Part shown: positions 3,759-62,972 of the stretch, piece after piece
How positions within the stretch are numbered: the stretch's first letter is position 1
Layout of the letters: each line of letters opens with the position of its first letter
Assembly (NCBI GenBank): GCA_949317995.1
Contig: OX439039.1
Coordinates: 75,340,002-75,404,001 of the forward strand
Origin: Acholoe squamosa
Taxonomy: Eukaryota; Annelida; Polychaeta; Phyllodocida; Polynoidae
Direction: 5' to 3'
Length of the DNA: 64,000 bases
Position numbers and translations under genes: made by a program
The notes under the pieces: model-generated
Seen by the model: only the letters and a program-made list of their open reading frames with translations
The model's database searches: none
Told to the model about the DNA's origin: nothing

Positions 3759-4311
3759 GTTTTGGACTGCTGGAAGCGGGCTGTGTCAGTATCAAGAACG
3801 AAGTGAACATCATGGTGAAAAATGCAGTGGACGTCATCTTTGGTGGACTCACATATTGGGCATTTGGCTATGGGCTCAGCTTTGGCGAGGACAAATATGC
3901 TAACCCCTTCTGCGGCATAGGGTTTTTCATGGTGGACACCAATGATCCAGACCTCATGGGAATTGTGTATTCCAACTTCATCTTCCAACTGTCCTTTGCC
4001 ACTACAGCGACCACGATCGTGTCAGGAGCCATGGCTGAGCGGACCAAACTGACTGCTTATATAATCTTCTCCTTGTTGAACACAATTGTGTATGTGATCC
4101 CAGCACATTGGATGTGGGCCAATCTCGGCTTTCTCAACCAGCTCGGGGTCATAGATGTGGCGGGATCTGGAGCCGTGCACCTCGTAGGAGGAACCTCTGG
4201 GCTGGTGGCTACTTTGATGCTGGGGCCACGGATAGGCCGCTATGAAAAGGGCAGTGACCCTCTACCACCTGGCAATGCTACAAATGCAATAGTGGGAATG
4301 TTTATGCTCTG
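3759..4311 (+). CDS. AMT gene 1, exon 2
   Basis: Starts after acceptor ...TCCATTAG and ends before donor GTAAGT; enters in phase 1, leaves inside a TGG codon. Encodes most of the first half of the transporter, from GFGLLEAGCVSIKNEVNIM to ATNAIVGMFMLW. It contains GAMAERTKL and the aspartate and first pore histidine in DVAGSGAVHLVGG. Length (553 nt) is identical to exon 2 of gene 2. Confidence 0.95.
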
Positions 4312-7300
4312 GTAAGTTGCACCTTTACTTTATCAATATATTTGTATATTCATTCCATAGCCTTGACTTATATGAAAGGATAATACCTTGCTGTGCCTAA
4401 ACGAAGTACCATTCAACTTCAAGTATGGTGCTAAAAAAGGGGCATTTGAGTAGGTACCTAGTTGGGAGAAGTCAGTCAGTATAATATACTATAGAGTGTG
4501 TAGGTACCTGATAGAGCAGCTCTCTCTGTTTTAAACAAGGCAGGTGACTAATGTGGTGAGTGCAAGTTGAATGGTGAAGCAGAGCGTGACTTCTTTTGAA
4601 AAGAGGGTACCTAATGACAGCTCTTTTTACCATAGGAGCAACACGCTCCTGTCCTGCAGGCAGGATATATTATTCCATGGTGCGCCCTAGGAGGGTGTTG
4701 CTCCTATTGTAAAAAGAGCTGTGAGTATGTGCCCTCTTTTCTAAACAAGTCGTGCTCTGCTTCACCAAAGTACTTGCACTCACCACATCAGTCTGAAAAG
4801 TCACATGCTTTGTTTAAAACAGAGAGAGCTGCACTATCAGGTACCTACGCATGTCACACACTCTATAGTAAGCTAATAAATCATGGATATTGCAGCCCTA
4901 GGGCCGTACATGCTGAATGCTGGTATATCCAGCATGTTAGGCCCGTGGGCTGCAATATCCATGACCTAATAGGTTTATACCACGATTTCCTCCATTTTGT
5001 ATTAATTTCTTACCTGATATCCACAGAATATAGCCAGGAGAAGATATTTTGTAAGTGCAAGCAATATGGCTCGGGTCTGCTCTGCGCGAAGCGGCGAGGG
5101 TATATCCAGCATGTTAGGCCCGTGGGCTGCAATATCCATGACCTAATAGGTTTATACCACGATTTCCTCCATTTTGTATTATTTTCTTACCTGATATCCA
5201 CAGAATATAGCCATGAGAAGATATTTTGTAAGTGCAAGAAATACGGCCCGGGTCTGCTCTGCGCGAAGCCATTGTTTTTGTTCCTTGCCGGGAGAGGTAC
5301 CGCTGTGTTTACGCACACTTTTCGTATGGAATCCAACCATGACATGTCGAGATATTAAAAAGAATACATCCTTAGATAGTCTTAATGATCCCTCCATGTC
5401 AAATGAGTCCATAATATTAACAATAAAGAAGAATCCATTGATTTTCCAAAACGGTCCGAAATTTTCGGCGTCTTCCTCGTATGGCGAGCGGATGACCTAT
5501 ATCTACATCCGGGCCACTGACACACTTTCGTCGGACAAGGAGCTGGGTGGGAATGGCCGGACCACAACTCACGTACATTGGGAAAATCAATGGATTCTTA
5601 TTTATATCGAAGAAAATGGAGAAAATTAGCACGTATTCCTTTTCTATGGATCGAACACTTCTTGGGATTTCGATATTATAACATGTCAAGGTTGAAATCA
5701 AGACATAGGACTAGGACCTCAGGTTAGAACTTATTTATTTTCGCATTGGGATTTCATCACCGTACAGTGTGGCGCTATGGCTAAGGCCGTCACCTACCAC
5801 CACTGCGGCCGGGTTCAATTCTCATACGAGTTGGCACGATTTTTCACAATGGAAAATTGCTAGATTAACTTTGTATAGCTGCCATAATTTCCAAAAATAT
5901 TCAAAGTCCAACTTGACCCCGAAAAAGTATATACCAAAAATTCCAAAAATGCACATGTGTGGTATATGCAGAATAATGCACAACTAAACTGCATATAAAC
6001 CCACCGGAAGTGCCAGAATCGTGGTATAATATATTATACTGACTGACTTCTCCCAACTAGGTACCTACTCAAATCCCCCTTTTTTAGCACCATACTTGAA
6101 TGACCACTTGTGAGCAACAGAAAGGACAAGTTATAGCTACATGAAAAGAAAGGACTGGAAACTAGGGCATTTTTAGCCAGTTCTTCCTTTTGCTATAGGA
6201 GCAACACCCTCCTGAAGAACTCTCAACGACATCCCATCAAGAGAAGTGATCAGAGCTGACATGAATGGGGGATGTAAATACCCTTGGGGAGATTCACAGT
6301 AATATTATCAACATCATTGTGAAATGCCCTCCTGGCCCTTTTGTATATCTCTGTTACTACTTATCGTCTTAACATTAAAGTGTGATTTGAAACTCTCTCG
6401 TTTGATTTCCAGGTGGGGTTGGCTTGGCTTCAACTGTGGCAGCACTTTTGGTATTTCAGGAGGGAAATGGAAATTAGCAGCAAAGTAAGTAACACTAAGT
6501 GCTGACGGATTAATTCTTAAAGTCTCCTTGAGGTTCCTGAGGCTAACTCTGTGTTCCCTCACATTGGTGATTATGGTCTTCTGAATCTAGATGAGTACAA
6601 ACATATCTTTTCTTTTCTTTGAATCAAGAGATGACTAAAGTTATTGATACTGACTTTATGATGTAAAGATAAATAGATTAAAAAAAGAAAGAAATGGATC
6701 TAATTGTACATAGAAAGCTTTCCATAACCAACTCATCCTTGTAAAGAATTTCTAGAAGAAACTGCTTGTACTACTATATAGCATTTTTTAAATCTAACAG
6801 TAACATGATTTGAGTCATTAGCCTAAATTCGCAATACCTTTTGCCTTTTCAGGTCTGCAGTGACAACAATAAACGCGTCTATGGGAGGAGGCTTTATAGG
6901 GATTACATACAGGTAAGTGTCGAGCAAATACCAGTAATGAGGCGATTTATCGGGCTACTCAGCAGCGACTTTTCTTTACCTTGTTGAAGGTGACAAGTGA
7001 AATAGTAGGCCTACATCTCTTTAAAAACACATTCCTAACTCAAATTAAAAGACACAGACTACACCAGGGCTTACTCTAAAAATCACCATCCAATTTTGAG
7101 CAAAAAAAACCCTCATTTTGAATCATTTTCATGTTGGTTCAGTTTGTTGACAAGGTAATGCCATTAGCTATTGGTTGTTTCCAAGTAGAAGGATTAGAAA
7201 AAGAAATACCTCTACCTGACTACCATACACTAGATTGACCTTATAATTTGGTCTTTTCCAACATTGTTGCAGCTATGTATTCCGGAACCGGAAATATAAT

Positions 7301-10300
7301 GTCACTGACCTGGTGAACTCTGTCCTCGGAGGTCTCGTTTCTGTGACAGGTAGGGAGAATTTACACCTCAATCATATGAACAATTAATTGAATAGAAGTC
7401 CATTTCAAGTATTTCTCCTCAGCTGAATACATGTTACAAGAATCCGATTATTACATATACCACAAAGAGCTCCCTGATGTTGCAATACACCTTATTTTCC
7501 TTTTAGCAGTATTTTAAAACATTTAGTATACCAGTATCAGTATTCATAAAGATGTAAAAATAATGATGAATTAAGAATTTCATGATGAACACATGAGTCT
7601 ACTAATTCTTGATATAATCACAGATTTATGCTTGTATAATGTGATGTGCTTTCTGGTGATGTCGTAAGAATGTGAAACCTAAAATTCATTATGATTATTA
7701 GGGTAGGTTCACCTTAAGTCGGCCACATACCCCAAGTCGGCCAGCCCACCCATTGACCAGAATAATCCTGCAGATTCCGTGATATTGTTTCATGGCCTTT
7801 GGGTGGGGTGGCCTTCTTACGGTATATCTTCGACTTGTGGCAAATCTACCCTATGTCAGTTTACGGTCCGCTACCTTTTGCCTGTAGTTTAGAGTCTGCT
7901 AAGCCTCAAATTTAGCTAAATGGAGAATAGAATTAGGGGCGCGTCCCCCTTTCTTCAAAATCTTGGATCCGTCACTGGTAAAACTGATTGCATCAAGAGT
8001 TGGTCTCCTTTTCAATGGAAACGTTTTGTGTAATGCATTGTGTCTCTACATTTCCTGCTTTAATATGAAATAGATATCTTCTTTGCTTCAGTGAAGATCG
8101 GCCTCTTTAATGTACTTTCTTTTGGTGGGAGGATAAGGGATTTGATCAAAGTTCTCGATCTACTCATGCCATTACATGTGCTAAAAGGTTGTCCTTTTTG
8201 TTTCTGTGTTCACTCCAAGATTCATGGAAGAACATATATTGAATGTGAAACTTATTTGTGTTTATCCAAATGTATATGCAGCTTTTATCAATTTAAAGGA
8301 AATGAATTTCACAATCTAGTATCTGGCGTCTATGTTGATTTAGCCCGGTGGACCTATACCCAGCCAGCACATCCACATGGCCCTAGATGGGAACCCACTG
8401 GCCTTTCTGGGCCAGCCCAGATGTGGGTTCAAGCTGGTAATTGTCTGGGCTGCCAGGTGGGGCCCAGGTGGGCTCAGTCCAGAAGCAAGTATCTCAGCTT
8501 AGCCCTCCTGGAAGTCATTTCTCAGACACTAAGTTTTGGGCACCCTGAAATCGTACTGACCTGGCCAGGATCGGAAGGGAATTCTTCATTGTACAGGGTC
8601 AATCACTACGATTACAGCAGATACAGATGGAAAAGGCATGCACCTGAATAGGCAATCGTAGGTAATACATGATCACCAAGGGTCAATCACTATGATTGGA
8701 TTGGATCATAGGGGTGATTGAAATCGGAGGGAGAGGGGTAGGATCGTAGTGTTTGAGAAATGGATAGCTGAGAGCTGTTTCACAAGGAGACTGAAATTAA
8801 GATCGATCTTTGGGCTATATGAGTGACCACTTAAGATCAGTCATTTGGTAATGACTACAAGTGTTTTCAGAACAAGCTGTTACTCATATCAGAACATAAA
8901 ACTGGTCCTTTAGAAACAGCTGTCAATTAGACATAGAGGCAGTAATCAAGATTAGTTGTAAGGTCACTCACAGACCAATCATCTAGCTTGTAAGTTCGAT
9001 CAACCAGTTCACAATATGTCTTTACCTTGTAATTTCATGATAGGAAAGGGGTATTTCAGAAGGGTATTTCATTTTTATCTATGCCTGACATCATGCATTA
9101 ACTCTTCCTTTACCAACTACACATTAATGCGTAGTTTTGGCCGATTTTGGCCAACTTTTGGCCCATATTGAGTACACTATAACTTCCAAAAAATCCATTG
9201 AAACTCTTTGAATTTTTTGTTAGACCTAGCCTGAATTGGGTTCTCCAGAGAGTCCAAAGAGTTAGTCGGTATATTGAGCATGGCAGTTTTACAAACTTGA
9301 GACAACATCTTAAATTACCCTAAAGGTTTTCTATAGATTTAATCAATAGTTAGGCTAAAAATCATGAAAAATGTCAAATAGTATTAATTTTTTGGTGAAA
9401 ATTGACTTTGTACTTTTTTTCATGCTCAACAAAATGGCATGGAAAATATGTGTGTATTTTGATGCATTATTGTCCATTTTGGCTGGTAACCAGGCAACAG
9501 GTATGAAAAAATGCAGATTTTCCATGGTTTTGGTTGTCATGGTAACCAAAAAATATTACTTCCAAAATTCATTATCTGCCAAAATTTCAACAAAACAAAA
9601 TATTTACTACAATATGCACTTTACATAATTGCAATTGATACAGGGCGTGCTGAGATATTGCAGTTTGAAGTTAACTCATGAGATAAACTTTTCTCATCAT
9701 ATCACCACATTATAATGATATATCTCATTAATCAAACTAGATAGAGGAAACTAGGGTGTTGTTCTATCTAACTGATTAGCCTAGCTTAACCGGTCACCAT
9801 TTCCGTTCTAATTTGAATATTCACATAATTCCAACGGTTTTTGATAGTTTATGTTATAAACTAAAACCCAAAAATTTGCTCTGAAATACTCTTGTAAAGG
9901 AAGAGTAAAAGGATTTGTGGAATTCCACTTATTGATATGATTTTTCACATTTATGTGTACCCTTAACCTCCCACATAAATCAGCTACTTTATGTTGGTCA
10001 TATGTCACTCTTACACCGGCCCTTCACTCATAAGTTTCACCCACCGTTTCCTTTTGAAACACTTCGACTGGTAGCAATAAGCCAATGATGAGTCTTCTGA
10101 TGACCATATGAGTGACATTGCTCCTATACCAATATCACTCATATATAGTGCTTGTGAAATATGTCTCTGAGAGCTGTTTCACAAGGAGAAGGAAATTACG
10201 ATGAGTCTCAGTGACATATGGGTGATCCCTTATGAATGATCTTTTCCAAGTGTTTCACAAGCATCACTCATAAGTATTGACATATGTCACTCATATGTTG

Positions 10301-13300
10301 AAATTTAAGATCAGTGCTTTAGAAACAGGTGTTGCTGGTACAAGGATCACTCGTCAAAATATGTCTGAAGACCAATTATGATCACTAGAGTCAAACAGAA
10401 TTGGACAAATATGTTGTAATACTGTATCCTACATTTACAGCCAAAAACAAGTTAAAATGACCTGTGAAAAAAAAACCCACAGATGTTTAAGACCCAAATT
10501 ACTAGTTAATACCATAAAGAAAATGTTAAATTACATTTTCTTAAGGGTTTTACACATTTATGTGGACTTTTTTAGGTGCCCATAAATTTGGCTTCAGAAA
10601 CATCTTTATGTTGGTTGTATCTCACTCATACAAGGCATTCAGGCAGCGGTTTTCTAACCATATGCAGTGCATTGTGGGTGGGGGTGACCTCGAACGCTAA
10701 CTACACAACCTTAGCTTGTTCCCTCCACCCCTTTCCACCCCAGCCAGGTCTGGCTAGGTACCATTCCCTAACTATGCTTGGGAGGGTAATTTCACCTTTA
10801 GCTATCACCTTCCCTTTTGAAACACCTCCTACTATGAGTAAGCTATACATATACGACCAGTGAACCCAATGATTGGTCTTAGTACCACCTTATGAGTAAT
10901 CTTGCTCGTAAGTCCATATCACTCGTATATAGCCATTGTGAAACCACTCTCTGGGCCCACCTGGCAGCCAAGACAATTACCATTTTACCAGCTTGAACCC
11001 ACATCTGGGCTGGCCCAGAAAGCCCAGTGGGTTCCCATCTGGGGCCCATGTGAACGTGTTGGCTGGGTATTCAGCCTTCTCCTGTGTCTGTGTTGTCAGC
11101 TATTTGACAGGCGTTATATCATTTCTACCATAAATCCTCGCGTATAGGACGCTCCTCGCGTATAGGACGCACCCCTAGTTAATCTAAAGCCTAAAGGACA
11201 CCCCTAGGGTCAAATTTTGGTGATTTTAGTACTGTTCTATAGTGGAAAATCCTCATCTATAGGACGCACCCCCAACTTCTGACAATGCTATAGGACGCAC
11301 CTGGGGTCATTTCAGTGCATAAGACGCGTCCTATATGCGAGGATGTACGGTAGTTCTATGTGTTGTTACACTATTGTACCCAATGCTGCTGTCAAATCAA
11401 GTCGGTGACGACTTCACCTGCCGACCCTTTTTTAATTTCCTTAACATTAAACTATATCTATTTATTCCAAAACGATTTCAACAACTGATGATCCCTGTCG
11501 TTTTGGTTCATACCAAATTCATTTACAGGTAGAAAATGACACATTCTTTGAAAAAAGGAAACTTTCTTTGAAAAAGGGAAACCCCAAACCATGCACTGAT
11601 TAATTTTGCCCCCCCCCCACCCACTCAGTCCAAGTTTCCTTTGAATCTTTGTATGATTTTTTGCAACTTACTTTTCTAATTTTCTTTGTGATCTCGACTA
11701 TTCCCCTGCGCTGCTTTTGATCAATTTTGTACATACCAGTAGTTAGCCTTGGAATGATTTTATTATTTCAATTTTACATTTATCATTATATTGTCATTAG
11801 TTTTCACTTAATTCTGCGTCCATATTTTAAAAGTCCATACGTAAGGCATGACTTGATTCCCAATTTTTATCATTACAATGCTTACTTTCCTAAAATATGG
11901 ACAAAATCCAATAGGAGAGAATTTCACAATGACAATGCCAATCAGTATTTTTATGAAACACCCTCTAGACCTGTACACACTGAAAAATCTGTTTACTTTC
12001 TTGTAATATTTTGGCAAAGGTGTAAAGGGTTTTGGCCAAAAAAGTGTTTCACAAAATCTTACAAGAAAGTGTTTAAAATATTAAACACATTTTTTAGTGT
12101 TCACTACTCATCAATAGCATGGTCTATCCATTTGCCCACAGGCAGTTGTGCCCTTATCAGACCCTGGGAGGCAGTCATCATGGGCATGATTGGCGGCACC
12201 ATTGCAGTGAACGGCGTAAAAATATTAGACGCTCTGCGCATAGACGACCCCGTCAGCGCCATATGTGTTCACGGCTTTTCTGGTCTCTGGGTGAGTTCAC
12301 CAGTTCATCTACAAAGCCATGAGACCAATGCACCTGGAGGGCATTTCTCAGGAGCCTACGAGAGGAAAAAACTTGTCTGCTAGAGCTAAGGCCTCTTTAG
12401 GTTTGCATTGGGTCTGTTGGCAATTTGAAGGTACTCTACAAGAAGAGTCCACAGAAATAGCGTCCAGAACGCTTTTATAATGAGGAGCATACTAGTGCAC
12501 CCTTCAAATCTCATCATAAACTCAATACAAAGTCAATCAACCTTAGCTCTCTGATAGCCTGGTTTATTCAAGTAGGACGCTGAGAAATGGCCTCCTGGCA
12601 TTATCACAGAATCCCACAGAAAGAACCAAGACTAGGCGGGAAGCATGGCACAGCCCAAAGCAAGTGGCGAGCTACACTAACAAAAAAGAATGTGAGGAGT
12701 CAAATCCGAGTCAAGTTTTATGTCAGCACGACTGCCGCTTTACTAAAGAGAGGAGTGAGGGATTGTTGGACTCCGAGAGAGAAATATGCTTCGTTGGATC
12801 CTTGGTCAAAGGCCTGTTACAGGCCTTGTTCAAAAGTCCATGGCTCCCCTCGTTTCCTACAGCAAAAACATTCCGGAGAGAGAATCCTGCAGTACTTGGG
12901 AAAGAGAGCACTGCAATGCTCCTTGAAAGGGGAGTCATCCTAATGATAAGTAAGCCCCTGAGTCAAGGGTCACCGTGACCCCCTCACTTTTATTTGAGGA
13001 GTTGCCTCCGCAGGGAGCCACTTGCCGAGGGTTGTAAAATGGACTAGAACTCGTTTGGTTCTTTCTTCAGTTATCTTCCATGTTTTCAGGTGACTTCTGA
13101 CCTTTTTTCTCTACCTTAAAATCCCTTAATGGATTTGGCCTGGTATGGCCAAATCAATTTTAAGGTGCTCCATGAGCAATCACTCGATAATCCAGATGAT
13201 TAGGAACCCTCTATGGTCCTCTAAGACCACATAAGTTTTGAATAAACGATGAGCGTGAATTATGCTCTTATTTTCATCCATGAAATGATAGAAAGGATAC

Positions 13301-16300
13301 ATATAGAAGGATTCTATGCCCTTAGATGCACCACTTGCACACAAAGACTTAGAGACAGTGTCTCAATAGTTGCTAGGACAGCCTTCTGACACTATTCAAA
13401 AACCACGACAACTAATCATGTACAATTATGGTAATGGCTGTTAGTTTCAGTTTATGTCATAGCAATTAAAACAGCAACACTTGGTAACTGCGATCAATAT
13501 AACAAATTGGTGTCCTGGCTTCTATATGTTGTATACACTGCCTCTAAAACTATGGTCCATGGCTCTCCTCGCTTCCTACAACAAAGCTCTAATTTCCCAT
13601 ACTACTACCCCCTACCACAGCAGGCTGCGCCCTGATAAGGACCTATGAGTCTGTTATCATTGGCTTCGTAGGGGGTATTGTGGCCGTTATCGGGGTGCCA
13701 CTTTTCGACAAGGTGCACATAGACGACCCTGTGGGGGCCATCGCTGTGCACGGTCTATGCGGCATCTGGGTGAGTGCTGTCTAGAAAAACACAAAGGTGC
13801 ACCCAAATGGGTCGCCACTGAGGGTTGTCACATTTGGCTTCGGCTGTGCCTCGTGTGATAACCCTAAATGGTGACCCATTCAGGTGCTCCTTTGTATCTA
13901 TTTCAAGTTATATTAGTCAGACATTTCAGAAATTCATTCATTTGGCATTAGTATTCATTTTATCATTAGTTATGTCACCATTAGGGATGATAGATAGGTA
14001 CCTGGCAGTGTAATACAGGGCTGGAACGTGTTGCTCCTATGGTAAAAAGAGCTGTCAGTAGGTACCCTCTTTTCAAAAGAAGTCACGCTCTGCTTCACCA
14101 TTCAACTTGCACTCACCACATTAGTCTGAAAAGTCACCTGCCTTGTTTAAAACAGAGAGAGCTGCACTATCAGGTACCTACTCATGTCACACATTCTATA
14201 GTATATTATACTGACCGACTTTTCCCAACTAGGTACCTACTCAAATCCCCTTTTTTAGCACCGTACTTGAATGACCACTTGTGAGCAACAAAAGGGACAA
14301 GTTATAGCTACATGAAAAGAAAGGACTGGAAATGAGGGAATTTTTAGCCAGCTCTTCCTTTTACTATAGGAGCAACACCCTCCAGGATACCTTCATATTT
14401 ATAACTCTGTGGCAAAACTGTTTAAGACCCCAACCCCTCCGCCTTAAAAAGGAGTGAAATCTTCACCCCCTTCCCACAGCAAAAGTCAAAATTCTGTTTA
14501 CTCCCTGCCAAGAGAGGGTCACCACACCCTCCACCTCGATAATGATATGACCATTCCCTGAATGGCGTCTATATAGCCCATTACCTGTACCTCTTTTGTC
14601 GATTCTCATTCTTCGTGATTGCTACTTACCTTGACTTGATCTGGGTAGATTGGTTTGAGCGCCTGAAGCCCCATATTGCGGGACACTTGTATGCCTGCTG
14701 TCTGGGTCCGTATCAATTAGTATAGATATACATAGGCGTAGCAGGGCATTTCTCGATAATACCTATTAAATTTATTGAGAACTGCCAATCGGGTTTTGTA
14801 GGAAAGCATTGGAATAGACTTTTCTGTACATGTCGACTCTGCCATTCTGCTGAATAACCCCAGGGATTGATCATTACAAGACAGTTTTAGAATTGCTTAC
14901 TTCAGTTAAAATTCTAGAATTAAATGTCAGTAAAAGTTAATCATACTGGATCATTGATTATTCAAATGTTAGATATAGGCTACCCTGTATAGACAAACAT
15001 CCAAATGCACTGTTACTATAATACATGTAGCTAGCGGTCGCTCATTTAGAGAAGTTTAGTCACAAATGGCCAAAATGAAGTACTTGGTCCAGGAGCATTC
15101 TTATTCATTTGTGGGACTGTTATTGCTAGCAGATGACATTTGATATATATGATCACATTGAAAAATAGGTGTCAAATTTTAGGCATTTTGTGCATCAGGG
15201 GATCACAGAATCATGCTCTAGATTTGTAGTGCTTGATGAAATTTTGGATCTCATCAAGGCTAAATTGTTTTGGAAAGATTTGTTCTAATATCCATGCATA
15301 CAATGTAGGGGCTAAAAAAGTGTGTTGGTCAGTACTTAGAAATAATGATTATACCAATATTTCTTACAAATTTAAAGAAAAAAAGAACTTTTATCTTTAT
15401 CCATGTAAATCATCAGTGACCAAGACCAAAGTGAATTTCAATGGTTTCATTTAAGTTACATTTTTGCCTTTTTTTGTTTCAGGAAATTAACTATTTCCAT
15501 CTATTGCAGGGTATGATTGCAGTGGGACTTTTCGTGGACATAGATCTGGTAGAGAACTTTACCAGAGGTAACAGAGGGTTATTCCATGGAGGAGGGCTCT
15601 ACATGTTAGGGGTACAGGCCTTGGCGTGTGTATGCATCATAGTGTGGAGCGGCACCATCACCTTCATTCTACTATTTGTGAGTATATTTAAAATGGTATA
15701 TAAGGCCAGTCCAAAAAAGTTATCACCATGCGATATAAAAAATTGACGAGGGAGGATTAAGATCAAAACCTATGTGCCGCGGTTGTCTGTGGGTAAAAAT
15801 AAGTGCATGTTAAAAGTAAAGTTATCATTAACATTTAAAAAGAGTGGAAATGGCTATCATATAGCTGCATTACTGGGGCCCTAAGCTTTACTTTGATACC
15901 AGACTTGACTACATTTGTCCATCTTTCAGTGTATTTTTGTCAGAAAGTTCTAACCAAAATGACGATTTTTCTGACGGGGGTGGTGATGAGAACCGAGGTT
16001 CTTTGGAGTGGCCTTATGTAGTTGATATAGGAGTCTGGGGGGGGGGGGGGTCATGGGCCTAAATAAACATCTGGACGTATGCACATCCTCTTGTTACTCA
16101 GAAATACCGCTCCTTTAGCCTAATTCTGGAATGCTACTTATTGCAATAAAACCTTGAACACAACACTGTTTCACATGATAAAACTTTTGATTCTTTCTTT
16201 GAATTATTTATTTGTTATAATCAAAAATGATCTATTTATACTGTTCAGAGTTAGCGGCCTTTGATGAGTTGTTTCATCTTATGATACCACTCGGGGATAC

Positions 16301-18052
16301 CACTCTCCACATCATATAATGTATATATTGCTAGCTCCAAACTAATAGTAGATAATGCCATTTTGACGGTCTATACAGTTGCAATTACAGTAAAATTCCG
16401 TTAAAACAAACTACTTGGGACAAGCAAAAAAATTCGTTATAAATGAATTTCGTTCTATCCAAACATCACATTAGAAGTCTTGAAAACCTACCAAATATCC
16501 CCTTTAAGGCTCTGTTCCATGTCTATATAGAAGCATCTTACAATTAGCTGCTTAGAGAAGTTTATTGAATTATTCACAAATCTCAAAAAAATAATATATA
16601 GAATGAAGAATCTATGCTACCCTACAGTTCCGACACAGGATGTGCAAATGTGAATGAAGGGCAACATCTCCCCCTAGCCCCTAGGCCCCTACCAGCATCG
16701 TCTGCACCCCAAACTCCCCCCCCCCCCCCCCCATCAAGTAGGAAGAATCTGTGGGGGATTAAAGGCAACATCTCCCCATACCCCCCTCCACCTATATCAG
16801 CATCAAAGGCCCCTCTCTGCATCCTCAGACACCTCCCCTCAGACACCTTTGTTGTAAACGAATTTAGGTCATGTGAAATTCGTTATAAAGGGACTTTTTT
16901 ACTATAGAAATGTAAGGGGCTGAATTGGGAAAGAGACATTTGTTTGTTATAAACGAAAATTCGTTGTAACAGAATTCTTTGAAACGGAATTTCACTGTAT
17001 CTGAAAACATGATACTGTGCTTCTTGGAAGAAGTATACACACCCGTGCCTTACATTGCCCTAAATCGAGAATATAAAGCTCGCTTCTGACTTTGACCCAG
17101 CATCATTCAGACGTCGAGGTGTATCAAAGAGTACACATTATTTATTTGCTTTTGTTCACCAATGTTTTCTTTTCATTCAGTGCATTAACAAGTTGATTCC
17201 AATCCGTATGTCGGAGTACGAGGAGACGATGGGCGCCGACTTCTGTGAACACGACATCGTCGACAGCTACCTGGCCGAGGACGGCGTAAGTAACACCGGG
17301 AGTACTCGACGACGTAGCAGCTTCGGCATCATACGTTATGACGGAACGCCGAACGGCTCCCTGCGCAGGCGTAACAGGGTCTCGGAAAATGGCTTCGCTG
17401 GTAGCCAGACTGAGGGAGAGAGCAATGGGGCTGTGGCACCTACCCAGATCGTTATCTCTACAATAGATGGCCATAGTCAGTGTCCACCAGAGGATAACAA
17501 GAAAGGTTTGTTATGTTTTGTATTGCCTTCTGATATTTTAAAAAAAAGTACTGTAAAAATGTCGTGAAAATAATGGCAAAATACTTGTCCCAAAGTTGCC
17601 AGAGATCCGTCTTTATTTTCATAGAAATTCCACTTACCACCGTACTACCATTTGGAGCTTCAAATGTAGAAACGACAATGCTCGACTGCTCTATGATCAC
17701 CATGGATCAGTTTTATGAGAATCCCTTTTACATTCAAGAGTAGTTGTTAGAGTAAAACACTTTATCCACCGCTATCAATCAATAGGCGTGAGTATAGGCG
17801 ATGGATCTTACTGTTCATTTTTTATTATAAGGTGCAAGAATAGATCACACAAAACTGAAAGTTTATTTCAGTTTCACTACATATACAATATTAACATCTC
17901 TTAACCAGTTACCAATAAATTGTCACTTTTCTTCCCCAGCAGAAAAGCAAAAGAACAAGAAACAGGGTAAGCGTGGTGCGCTGGGCTTTGCCCGGAAGTC
18001 ACATGGGTCAATGAACGTGACGTCATCACCGGCGCCTCCCAGGAGGACGTAG
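3759..18052 (+). CDS. AMT-family ammonium transporter, gene 1 (5' partial, with alternative exons)
   Basis: Membrane channel/transporter for ammonium of the Amt/MEP family (AMT branch, as in plants and invertebrates). Exons: 3759-4311, 6413-6484, 6853-6912, 7273-7349, then 12142-12290 or 13621-13769, then 15510-15677, 17181-17505, 17940-18052. With one preceding base from a missing first exon the joined length is 1518 nt, exactly 506 codons including stop. Visible family signatures: GAMAERTKL, the first pore histidine in AVHLVGGTSGLVATLM, the WWGWLGFNCGS turn, the second pore histidine in DDPVxAIxVHG, and the cytoplasmic IRMSEYEETMGADFCEH start of the C-terminal tail. The first exon (N-terminus and first helix in gene 2) was not found between 1 and 3758, so it is either upstream of the window or too diverged to spot. 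Tandem paralog of the gene at 26208-34408. A possible poly(A) signal AATAAA lies at 18123. Confidence 0.93.
4438..4876. repeat. Long palindrome of two foldback-element arms
   Basis: In AMT gene 1 intron 2. The left arm (4438-4645) is nearly the exact inverse of the right arm (4692-4876): compare AGCTCTTTTTACCATAGGAG with CTCCTATTGTAAAAAGAGCT. A third copy lies at 14028-14385. No coding capacity. Confidence 0.75.
4883..4962. repeat. 80-bp hairpin
   Basis: GGATATTGCAGCCC...ACATGCTG pairs with CAGCATGT...GGGCTGCAATATCC. Part of the nested insert. Confidence 0.7.
4924..5275. repeat. 177-bp tandem duplication
   Basis: Two near-identical copies (4924-5100, 5101-5275) beginning TATATCCAGCATGTTAGGCC. 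177 is divisible by three, so an open frame runs through both copies; I treat that frame (4729-5358) as a by-product and not a gene. Confidence 0.85.
5765..5850 (+). repeat. tRNA-like SINE head
   Basis: TGGCGCTATGGCTAAGG resembles a polymerase III A box, and GGTTCAATTCT about 45 bases on resembles a B box. It probably begins a tRNA-derived SINE. No full cloverleaf was established. Confidence 0.45.
6413..6484 (+). CDS. AMT gene 1, exon 3
   Basis: Follows acceptor TTTCCAG and precedes donor GTAAGT. Encodes WWGWLGFNCGSTFGISGGKW, the conserved aromatic/asparagine turn of Amt proteins. 72 nt, the same as the gene 2 counterpart; leaves in phase 2. Confidence 0.95.
6853..6912 (+). CDS. AMT gene 1, exon 4
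   Basis: 60-nt exon after CTTTTCAG and before GTAAGT. Encodes SAVTTINASMGGGFIGITY, matching ASVTTVMSAMGGGLVGITY in gene 2. Phases 2 in, 2 out. Confidence 0.94.
7273..7349 (+). CDS. AMT gene 1, exon 5
   Basis: 77-nt exon after GTTGCAG and before GTAGGG. Encodes YVFRNRKYNVTDLVNSVLGG and LVSVT; gene 2 has YVMKKRKFDVQTIINSVLG at the same place. It ends in phase 1, which fits either of the two downstream alternative exons. Confidence 0.94.
7699..7855. mobile_element. Small TIR element in AMT gene 1 intron 5
   Basis: TAGGGTAGGTTCACC at the left and GGCAAATCTACCCTA at the right are inverted repeats extending to AAGTCGG/CGACTTG. MITE-like, with possible TA target duplication. Confidence 0.6.
8357..11070. 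mobile_element. 2.7-kb element bounded by 115-bp inverted repeats
   Basis: TACCCAGCCAGCACATCCAC at 8357 is answered by GAACGTGTTGGCTGGGTA at 11070, and the arms match over about 115 bases (shared AGCCCAGATGTGGGTTCAAG and its complement). The interior has repeated GAGAGCTGTTTCACAAGGAG (8767, 10167) and no convincing gene. The 186-codon frame at 8091-8651 crosses the left arm and looks like chance. Confidence 0.65.
11126..11352. mobile_element. MITE of the GCGTATAGGACGC family, member 1
   Basis: TIRs TACCATAAATCCTCGCGTAT and the inverse ending GCGAGGATGTACGGTA; the interior repeats TATAGGACGCACC several times. Likely TA target duplication. Confidence 0.75.
12142..12290 (+). CDS. AMT gene 1, exon 6a (alternative version A)
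   Basis: 149-nt exon, acceptor GCCCACAG, donor GTGAGT, phase 1 in and phase 0 out. Encodes one long membrane segment, a short loop and the RIDDPVSAICVHGFSGLW pore segment carrying the second conserved histidine. 28 of 50 residues match exon 6b. Since 149 is not a multiple of three, including both or neither copy shifts the frame, so only one can be used per functional mRNA. Confidence 0.92.
12333..12598. repeat. Imperfect 100-bp hairpin after exon 6a
   Basis: Left arm 12333-12431 (CATTTCTCAGG...GAGCTAAGG...ATTTGAAGG) pairs with right arm 12501-12598 (CCTTCAAAT...CCTTAGCTCT...TGAGAAATGG) at roughly 70 per cent. It begins 43 bases after the exon 6a donor. Could be an old foldback element or a splicing-relevant RNA structure. 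Confidence 0.6.
13621..13769 (+). CDS. AMT gene 1, exon 6b (alternative version B)
   Basis: 149-nt second version of exon 6, acceptor CTACCACAG, donor GTGAGT, phase 1 in and 0 out, fully open. Encodes GCALIRTYESVIIGFVGG to HIDDPVGAIAVHGLCGIW. The acceptor is a tandem CAGCAG, so a variant three bases shorter is possible (start 13624). Reads in frame from exon 5 and into exon 7 exactly as exon 6a does. Confidence 0.92.
13791..13895. repeat. 43-bp hairpin 21 bases after exon 6b donor
   Basis: ACAAAGGTGCACC...GGGTTGTCACA (13791-13833) pairs with TGTGATAACCC...GGTGCTCCTTTGT (13853-13895) with a 19-base loop and few mismatches, several tolerable as G-U. Could sequester or expose the 5' splice site. 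Confidence 0.75.
14028..14385. mobile_element. Foldback-family element, uninterrupted copy
   Basis: CGTGTTGCTCCTATGGTAAA at the left, TACTATAGGAGCAACACCCTCC-type end at the right. Shows the structure of the 4690-6215 element before its insertion. Confidence 0.7.
15510..15677 (+). CDS. AMT gene 1, exon 7
   Basis: 168-nt exon, acceptor CTATTGCAG, donor GTGAGT, phase 0 both sides. Encodes GMIAVGLFVDIDLVENFTRG, a glycine-rich GLFHGGGLYMLG stretch and the last membrane helix. Its first 33 nt correspond to the end of exon 6 in gene 2, so the intron position differs between the paralogs. Confidence 0.94.
16386..16999. mobile_element. Pogo/Tigger-like MITE, member 1
   Basis: TIRs TACAGTAAAATTCCGTT and AACGGAATTTCACTGTA flanked by TA; inner TTCGTTATAAATGAA/TTCGTTGTAAC motifs. 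TIR sequence and TA duplication are typical of non-autonomous pogo-type elements. Contains poly-C around 16716-16732 and a chance 97-codon frame. Confidence 0.7.
17181..17505 (+). CDS. AMT gene 1, exon 8 (cytoplasmic tail)
   Basis: Starts after TTTCATTCAG. Encodes LIPIRMSEYEETMGADFCEH, the conserved start of the Amt C-terminal regulatory tail, then a diverged hydrophilic tail with an arginine/serine patch (STRRRSSFG). Donor AAAG/GTTTGT joins in frame to 17940; if unspliced the frame stops at 17565-17567 instead. Confidence 0.88.
17940..18052 (+). CDS. AMT gene 1, exon 9 (last coding part)
   Basis: After a pyrimidine-rich tract ending CCCCAG, the frame from exon 8 stays open for 37 codons, rich in lysine and arginine (KQKNKKQGKRG, PAPPRRT), to TAG at 18050. 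The acceptor is again a tandem CAGCAG (one residue difference). No family homology is expected in this tail, so the exon rests on splice sites and phase. Confidence 0.7.
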
Positions 18053-24539: not shown

Positions 24540-25205
24540 CAGCCTGTCAGTTTCTACACTACTCACAGTAGAACCTGCATCATATTATCAATTCCCTGCA
24601 CTACTCACGGTAGAACCTGCATCGTATTTTCAATTCCCTGCACTACTCTCAGTAGAACCAGCATCATATTGTCAATTCCCTGCACTACTCACAGAAGAAC
24701 CTGCATCATAGTGTCAATACCCTGCACTACTCACAGAAGAACCTGCATCATATTGTCAATTCCCTGCATTACTCTCATGAAACCTGTTTCATATTGTCAA
24801 TTCCCTGCACTACTCACAGTAGAACCTGCATCATATTGTCAATATCCTGCACTACTCTCAGTAGAACTTGTGTCATAGTGTCAATTCCCTGCACTACTCT
24901 CAGTAGAACCTGCATCATATTGTCAATATCCTGCACTACTCTCAGTAGAACCTGCATCATATTGTCAATTCCCTGCACTACTCACAGTAGAACCTGTGTC
25001 ATAGTGTCAATTCCCTGCACTACTCTCAGTAGAAGCTGTGTTATATTGTCAATTCCCTGCACTACTCACAGTATAACCTTTGTCATTTTGTCAATTCCCT
25101 GCACTACTCACAGTAGAACCTGCATCATATTGTCAATTCCCTGCACTACTCTCAGTAGAACCTATGTCATGGTGTCAATTTCCTCCTTTACTCTCAGTAG
25201 TGTGA
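24540..25205. repeat. 42-bp minisatellite
   Basis: About 15 copies of a unit reading CACTACTCACAGTAGAACCT then GCATCATATTGTCAATTCCC and TG. Since 42 is a multiple of three, stop-free frames run through the array; these are not genes. Confidence 0.95.
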
Positions 25206-26207: not shown

Positions 26208-26370
26208 ATGGCTAACATGGCGTCCACAGGAGTGCCTAACATGACACAGCCCGCCATGTCGGCTCCGACCTCCGGGCTGCCGACGCACACCGCGCCGTAT
26301 GGTAATATATCCTGGGACGACGCGACATGGATCATGACATGCTGCTTCATCATCTTCACCATGCAGTCAG
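26208..26370 (+). CDS. AMT gene 2, exon 1
   Basis: Start ATG at 26208 in context AACTATGG. The exon codes for an N-terminus with several Met/Thr/Pro residues, then GNISWDDATWIMTCCFIIF, the first membrane helix, and ends ...MQS plus one base before donor GTCAGG. The next in-frame ATG (26217) could also serve as start. Confidence 0.88.
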
Positions 26371-28258
26371 GTCAGGTTTGATTTTTATTTTCATATCTTT
26401 TCTTCTAATATTAGGCCGTTTTTTTTAATAACTTGGATTACGGATTATTTTAGTCAAAATCTTGGCCAGCCAGAGGCAAAAATTGACCCCAAAATTCCCA
26501 CCGGCCAGAGGGGAAAAAAAGGCCATGCTACCTCTCGTTTTTGGGCTTCAAATGTAACTTTTAGCCAATAAAGGGCAGATTTCTGACTGCCATATGTCGG
26601 AAAAATGTTAAAATGTTTGACATTTGTTGGTCTCGATGGACATTAATTTTTTCTATTTTTTTGCCCCTAAATCTTGAAAAATACCAGCGGCCACAGGTAA
26701 AAAAAAAAATTTTGCTTTTGCCAAAAATCTCACCGGCGGATTCTTTACAGATTCAAACTTCCAAAGGTCCAAACTTCTTTTGATTTTACATTTTAGGTGA
26801 AGTCATGAAACCTGGCAATCTACAAGATTATACTTTGGTTGAATAGCTTTTTCCTAGCTGGCACAGAACCTTTGTTTCAATTGAACCTATTTGAAAACCA
26901 ACTATCAACATTGACTCAACGTTGTATGCCCACTGATTTGCCATGTTTCAATAAAAGAATTATCATATCTTCTTTTAAAATTGTCTTATCCCCTGTCTGT
27001 AAATTTTTAACAGGATTTGGGCTCCTGGAGTCAGGATCAGTGACTGCTAAGAACGAGGTTAACATCATGGTTAAAAACGCCATTGATGTCGTCTTCGGTG
27101 GGCTCTCCTTCTGGATGTTCGGCTTCGGCATCGTCTTTGGCAACCCTAAGATGTCAAATGCCTTCATGGGCGTTGGCAACATCTTTGTGGACAGCTATGA
27201 TGTCAACCAGATGGGTGACCTCTACACTCTCTTCATCTTCCAATTGTCGTTCTGCACTACAGCGACCACGATTGTGTCAGGAGCCATGGCTGAACGCACA
27301 CGGCTTAACTCGTATGTTATCTTCTCCTTTCTGAACACTCTCATCTACTGCTTCCCGGCTCACTGGATGTGGGGCGACTATGGCTTCCTTGGGGGCTTGG
27401 GTGCAATCGACATAGCTGGCAGCTCGGTGGTGCACCTCGTAGGTGGGCTGTCTGGGCTGGTCGCCACAATGATGCTTGGGCCACGAATAGGGATCTTCGG
27501 TAAGGACGGCAAGAAGAAGCCAATGGGGTCACCGACTAATGCACTGTTAGGCATGTTTCTTCTATGGTAAGTAAGCTTATGTTTTTATGTACATCGAAGT
27601 ATAACATATGTTATATGTGTCAGAATGTACTCAGCCAATTCCCAAAAGTTTGGATAAATTTGACTCACAGTTTGGCCTAATACTTCGGGTTGTGCATATA
27701 TGATTCACAATATCTGGGCATTCATGTGAACACCAGCTACTTTCCGTCCCCAGCAGCAGATTTAAATGGGGTACGTGTCTCATTTTCCCCTGTAGGCATA
27801 ATTGTATTTGCCTCTTTTAGGCCTGAGATTTAACCAAAAATAGGGAGTAAAGGAAGGGCTGCCCGCTCTCCTATTCAACGTCGTTGATCAGCCACTGCCT
27901 CCCAGTGGATGATGTTTTGGAGTGGTGCATGCAGTTGGCAAAATACTTTTCTAAGGTCTCCTTTAAGGTAGCATCGAGGGTGAAACTCTTGAATATCAAA
28001 GACCCCTTACAATACTTTAGAGATCTGACAGTCAGCTCATAAGTGCTATAACCTTGTCCTTCGCAGCCACAGCTTAGATGTTTATGGATGTAATTCCTAT
28101 ATGGACTAGATGTCCAAGGAGAGGGACATGGTATAAAGGAACTCTAATCAGAATAGCACGAAAATTGATGCTATGAACTTTCTAACCAAGGATAAGAAAA
28201 TAGACCTCCATTTCTTGTATTGTTTTGGGCGTTATTTCAACATTTCTCTTACAGTGTA

Positions 28259-28314
<56 letters not shown>

Positions 28315-29151
28315 TTATGCATAGTGGCACTCTTACGTAACAACACTCAGGTACAAATATATAACCTTATTTATGCTGTAGTGGATATCTGTCAACTCCA
28401 CCCTTGCCTTAGGAGATAACAAAGAACGTCTTCTGTGACCCCAGCCTCGGACAGCGTCTATTGATACTCAGTTCAATAGTCTGGGAGCATCTCTATATTC
28501 AACTGGATGTGTATTCCAGTTTATTGTTTTATTGCCCCCTTTGATCTAGATAAGAATCTGATAGGTGTGGGATGTGTATTCACTCTCCAACCAGAGGTTT
28601 GGTCACTGCACAAATGCTTTATCTGCTTGAAGAGTGGAGCTTCGTCACTGCGGCGGCGAACCACTCAGCATAAGGTCTGAAGCCAGCCCGTAGTGTGACG
28701 GGCTGGAGAGGGCGAGCCTGCTGTGACCCAGGTGAATCAAGTCTCCTAGACCTTCACTTAGATGGATACAGGGACTGCTTGTCCTCTGACCTATGTCTGC
28801 TTTCTGGTTCATAATAAGCAGGTCCATGTCATTCAGTGACCAACATATCATAAAGAGGAACCAACTCTGGCGTGTCTAGAACATTGCCATATGGTGGGAA
28901 AATCGGAAGCGATTCCTTGCATCCAGTGTAGTGAAAGGAATTACCTATCTACTTTTGCCATTAAATAGCATTCCCTTTTTACTTTGCTCTCAATATTCCT
29001 CAGAAAGTACCTCATATTTCAGGTGGGGTTGGCTGGCCTTTAACTTAAAGTTTAACTGGGTCAGTACTTATGGGCGGCGTAGCAAGTAATTTCTATTTTG
29101 TGTGGTGGTGGAGGGGTCTTGATAAGGGATCCTACTATATCTTTATATTGG

Positions 29152-29208
<57 letters not shown>

Positions 29209-32200
29209 CCTTACCGGGTACCTTATCATCCTTTTCTTTCTGTTTTTAAGGGTAGCGGGGTAAGGGTTGGGTGCCCGAACCAATGTTTTCCAGTGCAATT
29301 GCGTGTAGTGAAAGGAGTTACTTTTGTCATTAAATAGCATTCCCCCTTTCTACATGTTGCTCTCAATGTCTATCAGAAAGTACCTCCAATTTCAGGTGGG
29401 GTTGGCTGGCCTTTAACTGTGGCAGTACGTATGGAATCTCCGGAGGGAAATGGAAGCTTGCTGCAAGGTGATCTATGACCCTTTCTGAATATAGTTAGAC
29501 CAATATCATTTTAATACCATTTCTGATACTGACAAATTAACTATTTAGTGTACATTTGTTATTCTAATTTAAATCCTCAATAATTCATCATTATAGAGCT
29601 TCTGTGACAACAGTCATGTCTGCCATGGGAGGAGGTCTAGTCGGAATAACTTACAGGTAAGTCACTCTACCGCTAACGACTGTTTTATTAACTAGGTCTG
29701 ACATGAAACTGTTACTAGATGTACACAATACACAATAGTAGACTCACAGGGAATATAAGAAGTCATGGACCGACCGTTATATACAGCAAAGGGGGGGGGG
29801 GTGCTTCTGTGGGGAGTAATGAAGACGTTGGGTGGCAAGATAAGGCAACAACATGTGAAATACAGTAAAGCTTCTTTATAAGGAGCTCGGATATAAGGAG
29901 ACCTTGCTTATAAGGAGCAAATTCTGTTTTCAAGATTCATTTAAATACATTCCTCTAGTAATAAAACCTTCGTAGAAGGAGGAAAATCCTCCATAAACTC
30001 GGATATAAGGAGGTTATTTTGGCCAGTGGAGGGTCCCAGGACTTCCCAACTCGCACCTTTGCCCTTTGATCTGCTCTATAGGCGGTGGTAGGCGGCCTGG
30101 AGGTTCCCAGGACTTCCCAACTCGCACCTTTGCCCTTTGATCTGCTCTATAGGCGGTGGTAGGCGGCCTGGGGGGGTTCCAGGACTTCCCAACTCACACC
30201 TTGGCCCTTTCATCTGCTCTATAGGCGGTGGTAGGCGACCTGGATGGTCCCAGGACTTCCCAACTCGCACCTTGGCCCTTTCATCTGCTCTATAGGCGGT
30301 GGTAGGCGACCTGGATGGTCCCAGGACTTCCCAACTCGCACCTTGGCCCTTTCATCTGCTCTATAGGCGGTGGTAGGCGACCTGGATGGTCCCAGGACTT
30401 CCCAACTCGCACCTTGGCCCTTTCATCTGCTCTATAGGCGGTGGTAGGCGGCCTGGAGGGTCCCAGGACTTCCCAACTCGCACCTTGGCCCTTTCATCTG
30501 CTCTATAGGCGGTGGTAGGCGGCCTGGAGGGTCCCAGGACTTCCCAACTCGCACCTTGGCCCTCTGATCTGCTCTACAGGCGGTGGTAGGCTGACCGTGC
30601 TTATAAGGAGCAAATTCTTATTTTTCAAGGTCCACCTTATATCGAAGTTTTACTGTATGACTAAAATTGGGGATATAATAATCTTACCTATTAGGCAGTG
30701 CAGAAAATGTTGGTTTTACCTCTGGGAAGGTAGTAATGCTAGAAATACTAGTCTGTCTCAGGCTGGGGAGGAAGTAGTACATGTACATTCTAGACCTCAA
30801 GGGAAGTAGTAGTATAGGAAATGTTGGTTTGCCTCAGGGTAGGAGGTAGTAGTATAGGAAATGTTGGTTTGACTCAGGGTTGGAAGGTAGTAGTATATGA
30901 AATGTTTGATTGACTCAGGGTAGGAGGTAGTAGTATAGGAAATGTTGGGTTTGACTCAGGGTTGGAGGTAGTAGTATAGTAAATGTTGGTTTGACTCAGG
31001 GTAGGAGGTAGTAGTATAGGAAATGCTGGTTTGACTCAGGGTGAGAAGGTAGAAGTATAGGAAATGTTGGTTTGACTCAGGGTGGGAAGGTAGCAGTATA
31101 GGAAATGTTGGTTTGACTCAGGGTAGGAGGTAGTAGTATAGGAAATGTTGGTTTGACTCAGGGTTGGAAGGTAGTAGTATAGGAAATGTTTGATTGACTC
31201 AGGGTAGGAGGTAGTAGTATAGGAAATGTTTGATTGACTCAGGGTAGGAGGTAGTAGTATAGGAAATGTTGGGTTTGACTCAGGGTTGGAAGGTAGTAGT
31301 ATAGTAAATGTTGGTTTGACTCAGGGTAGGAGGTAGTAGTATAGGAAATGTTGGTTTGACTCAGGGTGAGAAGGTAGAAGTATAGGAAATGTTGGTTTGA
31401 CTCAGGGTGGGAAGGTAGCAGTATAGGAAATGTTGGTTTGACTCAGGGTTGGAAGGTAGTAGTATATGAAATGTTGGTTTGCCTCAGGGTAGGAGGTAGT
31501 AGTATAGGAAATGTTGGTTTGACTCAGGGTGGGAAGGTAGTAGTATAGGAAATCTTGGTATCACTCAGGGTGGGAAGGTAGTACCGTAAAACCCCGGCTA
31601 TAAGTCGATTTTTTATTTTTATTTATTTTTCATATAAGTCCATTTTTCCCCCCAAAGCGGGGGATTAACTTATAGGAGGGATTGTCAAACATGATTATAG
31701 TATTAATATTTCTCAAGCACTTTTTCTATAGGTCGAATTTGATTCTCAAAGAGGGGCTCGACTTATAGGTGGGGTAGACTTATAGGCGGGGTTTTACGGT
31801 AGTATAGGAAATGTTGGTTTGACTCAGGGTGGGAAGGTAGTAATGTATGAAATGTTGGCATCACTCAGGCATGGGAGGTAATAGCATAGGAAATGATTCA
31901 GGCAGGGAAGGAAGCAACATACAAGAAATGTGATGAAATTATTTTTATTTTCAGTTATGTCATGAAGAAGAGAAAGTTTGATGTTCAAACCATAATAAAC
32001 AGTGTGCTGGGTGCCTTAGTAAGTATAACAGGTAAGAATCAAGAGTTTTACATTCAAACATGATTTAATTAGGGAGGAACATGGGGGAGGGGATAGAGGG
32101 ACTATCCCCTCCCCCATTTACAAATTTTCTGTTTACAATCATATCCAACCCACATTATAACCCGTAGGTACTTTGTTGAAATATAGAAATCATGAAAATA

Positions 32201-37149: not shown

Positions 37150-62972
<25,823 letters not shown>

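What the first reader, a model, noticed from the sequence alone, without database searches (positions are those of the whole stretch)
12142..13769. Two mutually exclusive exons for the pore-histidine segment of an ammonium transporter
Two intact exons, both 149 nt, both phase 1 in and 0 out, both with good splice sites, encode alternative versions (28/50 identical) of the same segment including the second conserved pore histidine. Because 149 is not divisible by three, using both or neither breaks the frame, so the gene structure forces a choice. The differences (for example CVHGFSGLW versus AVHGLCGIW) sit in the channel wall, so the isoforms could differ in transport or selectivity. I know of no described case of exon choice tuning an Amt pore.
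Basis: partly seen in the sequence, partly recalled or inferred. Interest (0 to 1): 0.88.

Follow-up and report, generated by a model that had tools for sequence, protein, structure and literature searches.

The report
Two swappable exons in ammonium transporter
An animal ammonium-transporter gene carries two intact, interchangeable versions of one exon in a row, and the reading frame allows only one to be used at a time, so the gene very probably makes two versions of the transporter; transcripts are still needed to prove it.

Summary
Gene 1 of a tandem pair of animal Amt genes (PF00909) has two adjacent 149-nt exons, 6A (12142-12290) and 6B (13621-13769), with the same phases, good U2 splice sites and 28/50 identical residues. 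Using both, or neither, gives an early stop. The pair is old: synonymous codons are saturated (10 of 27 shared, 9.1 expected by chance), and differences by codon position are 14/49, 9/50 and 32/50. Yet each exon keeps 13 of the 14 positions conserved in at least 90% of 120 animal Amts. Mutually exclusive splicing is much the best reading, though no transcript could be examined. The functional claim needs correcting: the two pore-lining residues of this stretch named for AmtB (V314, H318) have the same equivalents in both versions, and 13 of 22 differences lie in the preceding helix, which varies across animals. I expect tuning of packing, subunit contact or rate rather than a new selectivity filter. 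Swapped exons are known in ZIP14, NKCC2 and NALCN; four open-access searches aimed at Amt/Rh listed no such case: a new member of a known kind.

The parts
3759..4311 (+). Gene 1 (Amt) exon 2, 553 nt, holds the first pore histidine (GAVHLVGG)
   Evidence: same length as gene 2 exon 2
6413..6484 (+). Gene 1 exon 3, 72 nt
6853..6912 (+). Gene 1 exon 4, 60 nt
7273..7349 (+). Gene 1 exon 5, 77 nt, ends in phase 1
12142..12290 (+). Alternative exon 6A, 149 nt (GSCALIRPWEA...CVHGFSGLW)
12291..13620 (+). Intron between the alternative exons, 1330 nt; no significant Amt match in it
13621..13769 (+). Alternative exon 6B, 149 nt (AGCALIRTYES...AVHGLCGIW); CAGCAG tandem acceptor
13791..13895 (+). Fold-back (MITE-like) hairpin beginning at base 22 of the intron after exon 6B; possible but untested cis effect
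15510..15677 (+). Gene 1 exon 7, 168 nt, shared by both isoforms
17181..17567 (+). Gene 1 exon 8, C-terminal tail; its 3' end is uncertain
26208..34408 (+). Gene 2, tandem Amt paralogue, 8 exons, one intact copy of the corresponding exon (32780-32961), no intron at W|G
32474..32588 (+). Decayed partial duplicate of the gene 2 exon 6 acceptor and exon start (in-frame stop; the copy ends long before the exon's donor): an example of a dead copy

Best explanation
Exons 6A and 6B are a functional pair of mutually exclusive exons in an animal Amt gene. Each mature mRNA takes one of them. The gene therefore makes two ammonium transporters that differ only in a 50-residue stretch: the helix before the IDDP motif with its approach, and the start of the helix carrying the second pore histidine. 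Shown here: anatomy, frame constraint, age and long-term protein conservation of both exons. Inferred: transcripts with two exons or none are destroyed by nonsense-mediated decay, and a trans-acting splicing factor chooses, because the splice sites are near equal, U2-type, and too far apart for steric exclusion. Inferred and less sure: the isoforms share the conduction path and differ in helix packing, trimer contact, rate or affinity, rather than in the twin-histidine filter.
For: Same length, phases and splice-site type, homologous, adjacent: the criteria used to predict such exons (PMC3228551, passages). Both-in and both-out give premature stops upstream of the last junction. Codon-position differences 14/49, 9/50, 32/50; NG86 dN 0.31, dS 2.33, with LWL85 dS 1.9 and ML dS 5.7 (YN00 gave no value). 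Of 27 degenerate codons for shared residues, 10 are the same, 9.1 expected (sd 2.4) if codon choice were independent. Neutral simulation at distance 0.70 and at 1.44 (the third-position distance) gave 28 or more identical residues in 0 of 4000 runs each. Exons 6A and 6B each match 13 of the 14 columns at least 90% conserved in 120 animal Amts. Mean identity to 119 animal segments: 6A above 20% of those animals, 6B above 49%, gene 2 above 6%. PF00909 scores 371 and 380 bits with A and B. No detectable similarity between the introns flanking A and those flanking B, so no recent duplication or assembly artefact.
Against: No transcript data of any kind. With 6A as the searched region, 1 protein passed E 0.001 among 36 candidates; with 6B, 420 of 481 did, the 120 listed being led by bacterial Amts. 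6A is thus the more derived version and could be under weaker constraint. No orthologous exon pair could be shown in another species. No docking or selector pairing stood out: of five intron pairs only one (score 38, largest of 30 shuffles 36) exceeded all its shuffles, unremarkable for five tests.
Confidence: 0.84

Rival explanations
1. Exon 6A is a relic: an old duplicate no longer used, or included only at noise level, while 6B makes the working transporter.
For: 6A is the more derived: its region search found 1 protein of 36 candidates against 420 of 481 for 6B, and at four positions it has residues seen in at most 1 of 120 animals. Dead partial duplicates do occur in gene 2.
Against: At saturated synonymous divergence 6A still has an open frame, intact splice sites and 13 of 14 family-conserved positions; neutral simulation does not reach this. 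The gene 2 partial copies, at 79-82% nt identity, are already broken.
Confidence: 0.08
2. The pair serves mainly to control amount: double inclusion or skipping is used productively to send mRNA to decay, and the protein difference is secondary.
For: Both off-frame products have stops 305 and 109 nt before the last junction of the model, which by the usual rule (recalled) triggers decay.
Against: A decay switch needs no conserved protein sequence in both exons, but both are conserved. A single out-of-frame cassette would do.
Confidence: 0.05
3. 6A and 6B are not alternatives in one gene but parts of two overlapping transcription units left by a partial gene duplication.
For: Amt genes here are tandemly duplicated.
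Against: Only one copy of exons 2-5, 7 and 8 was found around them; tblastn with five animal Amts gave no significant match between 12290 and 13621 or between 13769 and 15510 (one chance-level hit, E 2.6, on the other strand).
Confidence: 0.02

Closest known systems
ZIP14 (SLC39A14) exons 4A/4B
   Same: Two mutually exclusive exons in a metal-ion transporter; [quoted passage not shown]
   Different: Unrelated transporter family; there transcripts and affinities are reported, here only sequence
NKCC2 (SLC12A1) alternative exon 4
   Same: Alternative exon 4 encodes a transmembrane segment and the transcripts differ in ion affinity (passages of PMC6873903)
   Different: At least three transcripts; different transporter family; vertebrate kidney
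NALCN and voltage-gated channel tandem exons
   Same: Tandem duplicated exons swap channel segments; NALCN forms are described as selective for calcium or sodium (passages of PMC9741552)
   Different: In NALCN the swap is reported to change selectivity; here the named pore-lining residues are unchanged
AgRh50a/AgRh50b of Anopheles gambiae
   Same: Alternative splicing in the Amt/Rh superfamily, one form antennal (passages of PMC4216128)
   Different: An extra 3' exon alters the C-terminus only; not homologous swapped exons; the same paper reports a single AgAmt transcript

Membership tests
Mutually exclusive exon cluster (criteria of PMC3228551) | Neighbouring internal exons of about the same length | tested here: met
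   149 and 149 nt, adjacent
Mutually exclusive exon cluster (criteria of PMC3228551) | Compatible splice sites and conserved reading frame | tested here: met
   GT-AG, phase 1 in and 0 out for both
Mutually exclusive exon cluster (criteria of PMC3228551) | Homologous sequence | tested here: met
   28/50 identical, tblastn E 5e-16 and 4e-18
Mutually exclusive exon cluster (criteria of PMC3228551) | Exactly one exon present in each productive transcript | not testable with these tools
   No RNA data held; the frame makes any other product truncated
Mutually exclusive exon cluster (criteria of PMC3228551) | Known enforcing mechanism: steric, U2/U12 or RNA pairing | tested here: inconclusive
   1330 nt apart and GT-AG sites of U2 type by eye, so neither of the first two; pairing scan within shuffle range in four of five tests
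Amt/Mep/Rh ammonium transporter family, Amt branch | PF00909 above curated cut-off | tested here: met
   371.3 and 379.9 bits against a cut-off of 23.2
Amt/Mep/Rh ammonium transporter family, Amt branch | Both pore histidines present in both isoforms | tested here: met
   First in exon 2 (GAVHLVGG), second in CVHGF and AVHGL
Amt/Mep/Rh ammonium transporter family, Amt branch | Transports ammonium | not testable with these tools
   No assay

The most novel reading that the evidence does not exclude
The exon choice is an ancient, regulated switch between two Amt transport modes, with A and B subunits mixing in one trimer, and it also exists in other invertebrate phyla. The lead is two Lineus longissimus Amt proteins, 80% identical outside this segment and 52% inside, where the two best-fitting low-identity blocks (core columns 257-304 and 254-304, tied) nearly coincide with the exon (253-302).
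Probability: 0.15. Interest if true: 0.75.

Novelty: new member of a known kind. Interest (0 to 1): 0.52.

Why it matters
Amt proteins are probed mostly by point mutation (recalled). A natural pair of swapped segments kept intact by selection would be a ready-made experiment on which parts outside the twin-histidine filter tune ammonium transport. It would also mean that an invertebrate regulates ammonia handling by splicing as well as by gene copies. It would add the Amt family to the ion transporters with tandem exon swaps, for which convergent evolution has been argued (abstract passage of PMC9741552).

Tried and rejected
Whole-genome search: the genome search 'own' with PF00909 was sent ten times in the same form and never answered. 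So the organism, other Amt genes of this genome and other exon pairs in it are unknown.

Cross-species proof: the protein collection is clustered at 90% identity, which would merge two such isoforms (22 differences in 487 residues), and no animal genomic DNA collection was on hand. Instead I looked for protein pairs whose identity drops at this exon. P0001, which looks like two Amt models fused, was dropped, leaving 119 of 120. Lineus P0004/P0014 and the limpets P0028/P0035 had the two lowest segment identities among the pairs printed in the 0.76-0.86 band. The limpet drop is confined to the helix before IDDP (best blocks within columns 261-288), so it looks like ordinary variability; the Lineus block fits the exon but is only a lead. 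Neither pair is among the 30 largest drops printed of 263 pairs, and most of those 30 lie partly or wholly outside this exon.

RNA structure: five intron pairs scanned for docking/selector pairing, nothing convincing. Of five 150-nt flanks folded, the one upstream of 6A has z -2.3 and the one after 6A's donor -2.8, both weak; upstream of 6B +1.0, upstream of exon 7 -0.7. The one after 6B's donor is strong (z -9.8), but nearly as stable 120-nt stretches occur elsewhere in the window (-66.5 and -66.3 against -69.0 kcal/mol). Rfam at gathering scores found nothing in 3000-35000.

Phylum: in a 43-row tree gene 1 branches just outside a 14-row group (support 95/80) that holds gene 2, one Lingula protein, arthropods, deuterostomes and others; the phylum stays undetermined.

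Full report
Observation. Reading the window and assembling exons confirms the two exons at exactly the stated places. Exon 6A is 12142-12290 and 6B is 13621-13769. Both are 149 nt, both complete a codon begun by the last base of exon 5 (7349) and end on a whole codon before exon 7 (15510). They encode 50 residues each, 28 identical. Both donors read TGG|GTGAGT; both acceptors have 12 of 16 pyrimidines. Exon 6B's acceptor is a CAGCAG tandem. Joining both exons, or neither, gives a stop codon 305 or 109 nt before the last junction of the model, so any mRNA without exactly one of them is truncated.

Gene context. The exons belong to gene 1 of a tandem pair of Amt genes on the + strand. Both isoforms score far above the Pfam cut-off for PF00909 (371 and 380 bits against 23.2). 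Gene 2 (26208-34408) has the same lengths for exons 2-5 (553, 72, 60, 77 nt). Its sixth exon has one intact copy and is 33 nt longer (182 nt), and its seventh is 33 nt shorter (135 nt); the sums are equal (317 nt). The intron after the Trp codon that bounds the alternative exons is therefore absent from gene 2. Gene 1 exon 1 was not found in the window. On the minus strand lies an ELP1 gene: of eight open frames scanned, four pass an ELP1 cut-off in Pfam and a fifth falls just short.

Both exons are old and selected. Differences between 6A and 6B fall 14/49, 9/50 and 32/50 at codon positions 1, 2 and 3; NG86 gives dN 0.31 and dS 2.33. Of 27 degenerate codons for shared amino acids, 10 are identical, against 9.1 (sd 2.4) expected if codons were chosen independently, so synonymous sites are saturated. 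A neutral copy of 6B at distance 0.70 or 1.44 never kept 28 of 50 residues in 4000 simulated runs each. Against 120 animal Amts (the 120 listed of 6535 hits), 6A and 6B each keep 13 of 14 columns conserved at 90% or more. By mean identity to 119 animal segments, 6A lies above 20% of those animals, 6B above 49% and gene 2 above 6%. In gene 2 a 115-nt partial copy of the same exon's acceptor and start (32474-32588), at 79% identity, already has an in-frame stop and ends long before the donor. That dead copy is a useful contrast.

Results against symmetry. When only the exon region was searched, 6B drew 420 significant proteins of 481 candidates, the list being led by bacterial Amts (69% identity), and 6A drew 1 of 36. 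The search needs shared five-residue words, so this exaggerates the gap, but 6A is the more derived. On the other hand 6A keeps the PWEA stretch common in animals, where 6B has TYES. Each has kept common features that the other lost.

What the swap changes. The AmtB passages I read name V314 as part of the pore's second hydrophobic region and H318 as protruding into the lumen (PMC7447429). The equivalent residues, four before the histidine and the histidine itself, are Ala and His in both exons. Of 22 differences, 4 lie at segment positions 1-10, 13 at positions 11-33 (the helix before IDDP and its end) and 5 in the histidine helix (6B/6A: G/S, A/C, L/F, C/S, I/L; counted). The cysteine before VHG in 6A is seen in 0 of 120 animals. 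The stretch before IDDP is variable in other animals too. I therefore expect altered packing, trimer contact, rate or affinity, with the same filter. This is inference.

How the choice is made. The exons are 1330 nt apart and the introns look U2-type, so steric exclusion and spliceosome incompatibility are unlikely. [quoted passage not shown] The scan for competing RNA pairing was within shuffle range in four of five intron pairs and marginally above it in one. A strong fold-back element begins at base 22 of the intron after 6B and could affect use of that donor; nothing tests this. I favour a trans-acting regulator plus frame-based removal of errors.

Elsewhere. Two Lineus longissimus Amt proteins, from contigs of the same listed length, are 80% identical outside and 52% inside this segment. 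The two best-fitting low blocks (columns 257-304 and 254-304, tied) nearly equal the exon (253-302). This hints at exon exchange or alternative exons in another phylum, but the drop is not among the 30 largest of 263 pairs and the gene structure could not be read.

Known kinds. Mutually exclusive or tandem exons in transporters and channels are well established: ZIP14 4A/4B (PMC10761908), NKCC2 exon 4 (PMC6873903), and NALCN and other channels (PMC9741552); only passages of these were read. Searches aimed at an Amt or Rh example (2 of 2 papers listed; 20 of 113; 12 of 33; 8 of 11) gave only the C-terminal variants of AgRh50 (PMC4216128, passages). The passages on exons and isoforms in a Drosophila Amt paper (PMC4238959) mention none. 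The other five searches were on AmtB residues, known swapped exons and prediction methods. I file it as a new member of a known kind, with transcript proof outstanding.

Noticed in passing
28926-29045 and 29303-29418: In gene 2, the end of the intron and start of exon 3 are duplicated (82% identical) just upstream of the true exon, with an insertion in the copy. Together with 32474-32588 this makes two partial acceptor-plus-exon duplications in one gene.
   Followed up: partly
15483-15510: Exon 7 of gene 1 has a second acceptor 27 nt upstream with a longer pyrimidine tract; using it would add nine in-frame residues (EINYFHLLQ) inside the histidine helix.
   Followed up: no
12836-12866 and 13555-13585: A 31-nt direct repeat (90%) lies inside the intron between 6A and 6B, one copy just upstream of the 6B acceptor.
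   Followed up: no
8356-8464 and 10953-11070: Inverted repeat of about 110-120 nt in the long intron before 6A could loop out about 2.5 kb.
   Followed up: no
15510 versus 32961: The intron after exon 6 sits 33 nt further downstream in gene 2 than in gene 1, while the two flanking exons sum to the same 317 nt.
   Followed up: partly
37894-63042: Minus strand carries exons of an ELP1 (Elongator subunit 1) gene: four of eight open frames scanned pass an ELP1 Pfam cut-off, one falls just short.
   Followed up: partly
24557-25200, 30027-31583, 40377-41061, 42847-43944: Large tandem repeat arrays with units of 21 to 122 nt, two of them inside gene 2's intron between exons 4 and 5.
   Followed up: no
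P0028 versus P0035 (Lottia and Patella proteins): Limpet Amts 81% identical elsewhere fall to 54% in this segment, the drop being confined to the stretch before IDDP: that helix evolves fast.
   Followed up: partly
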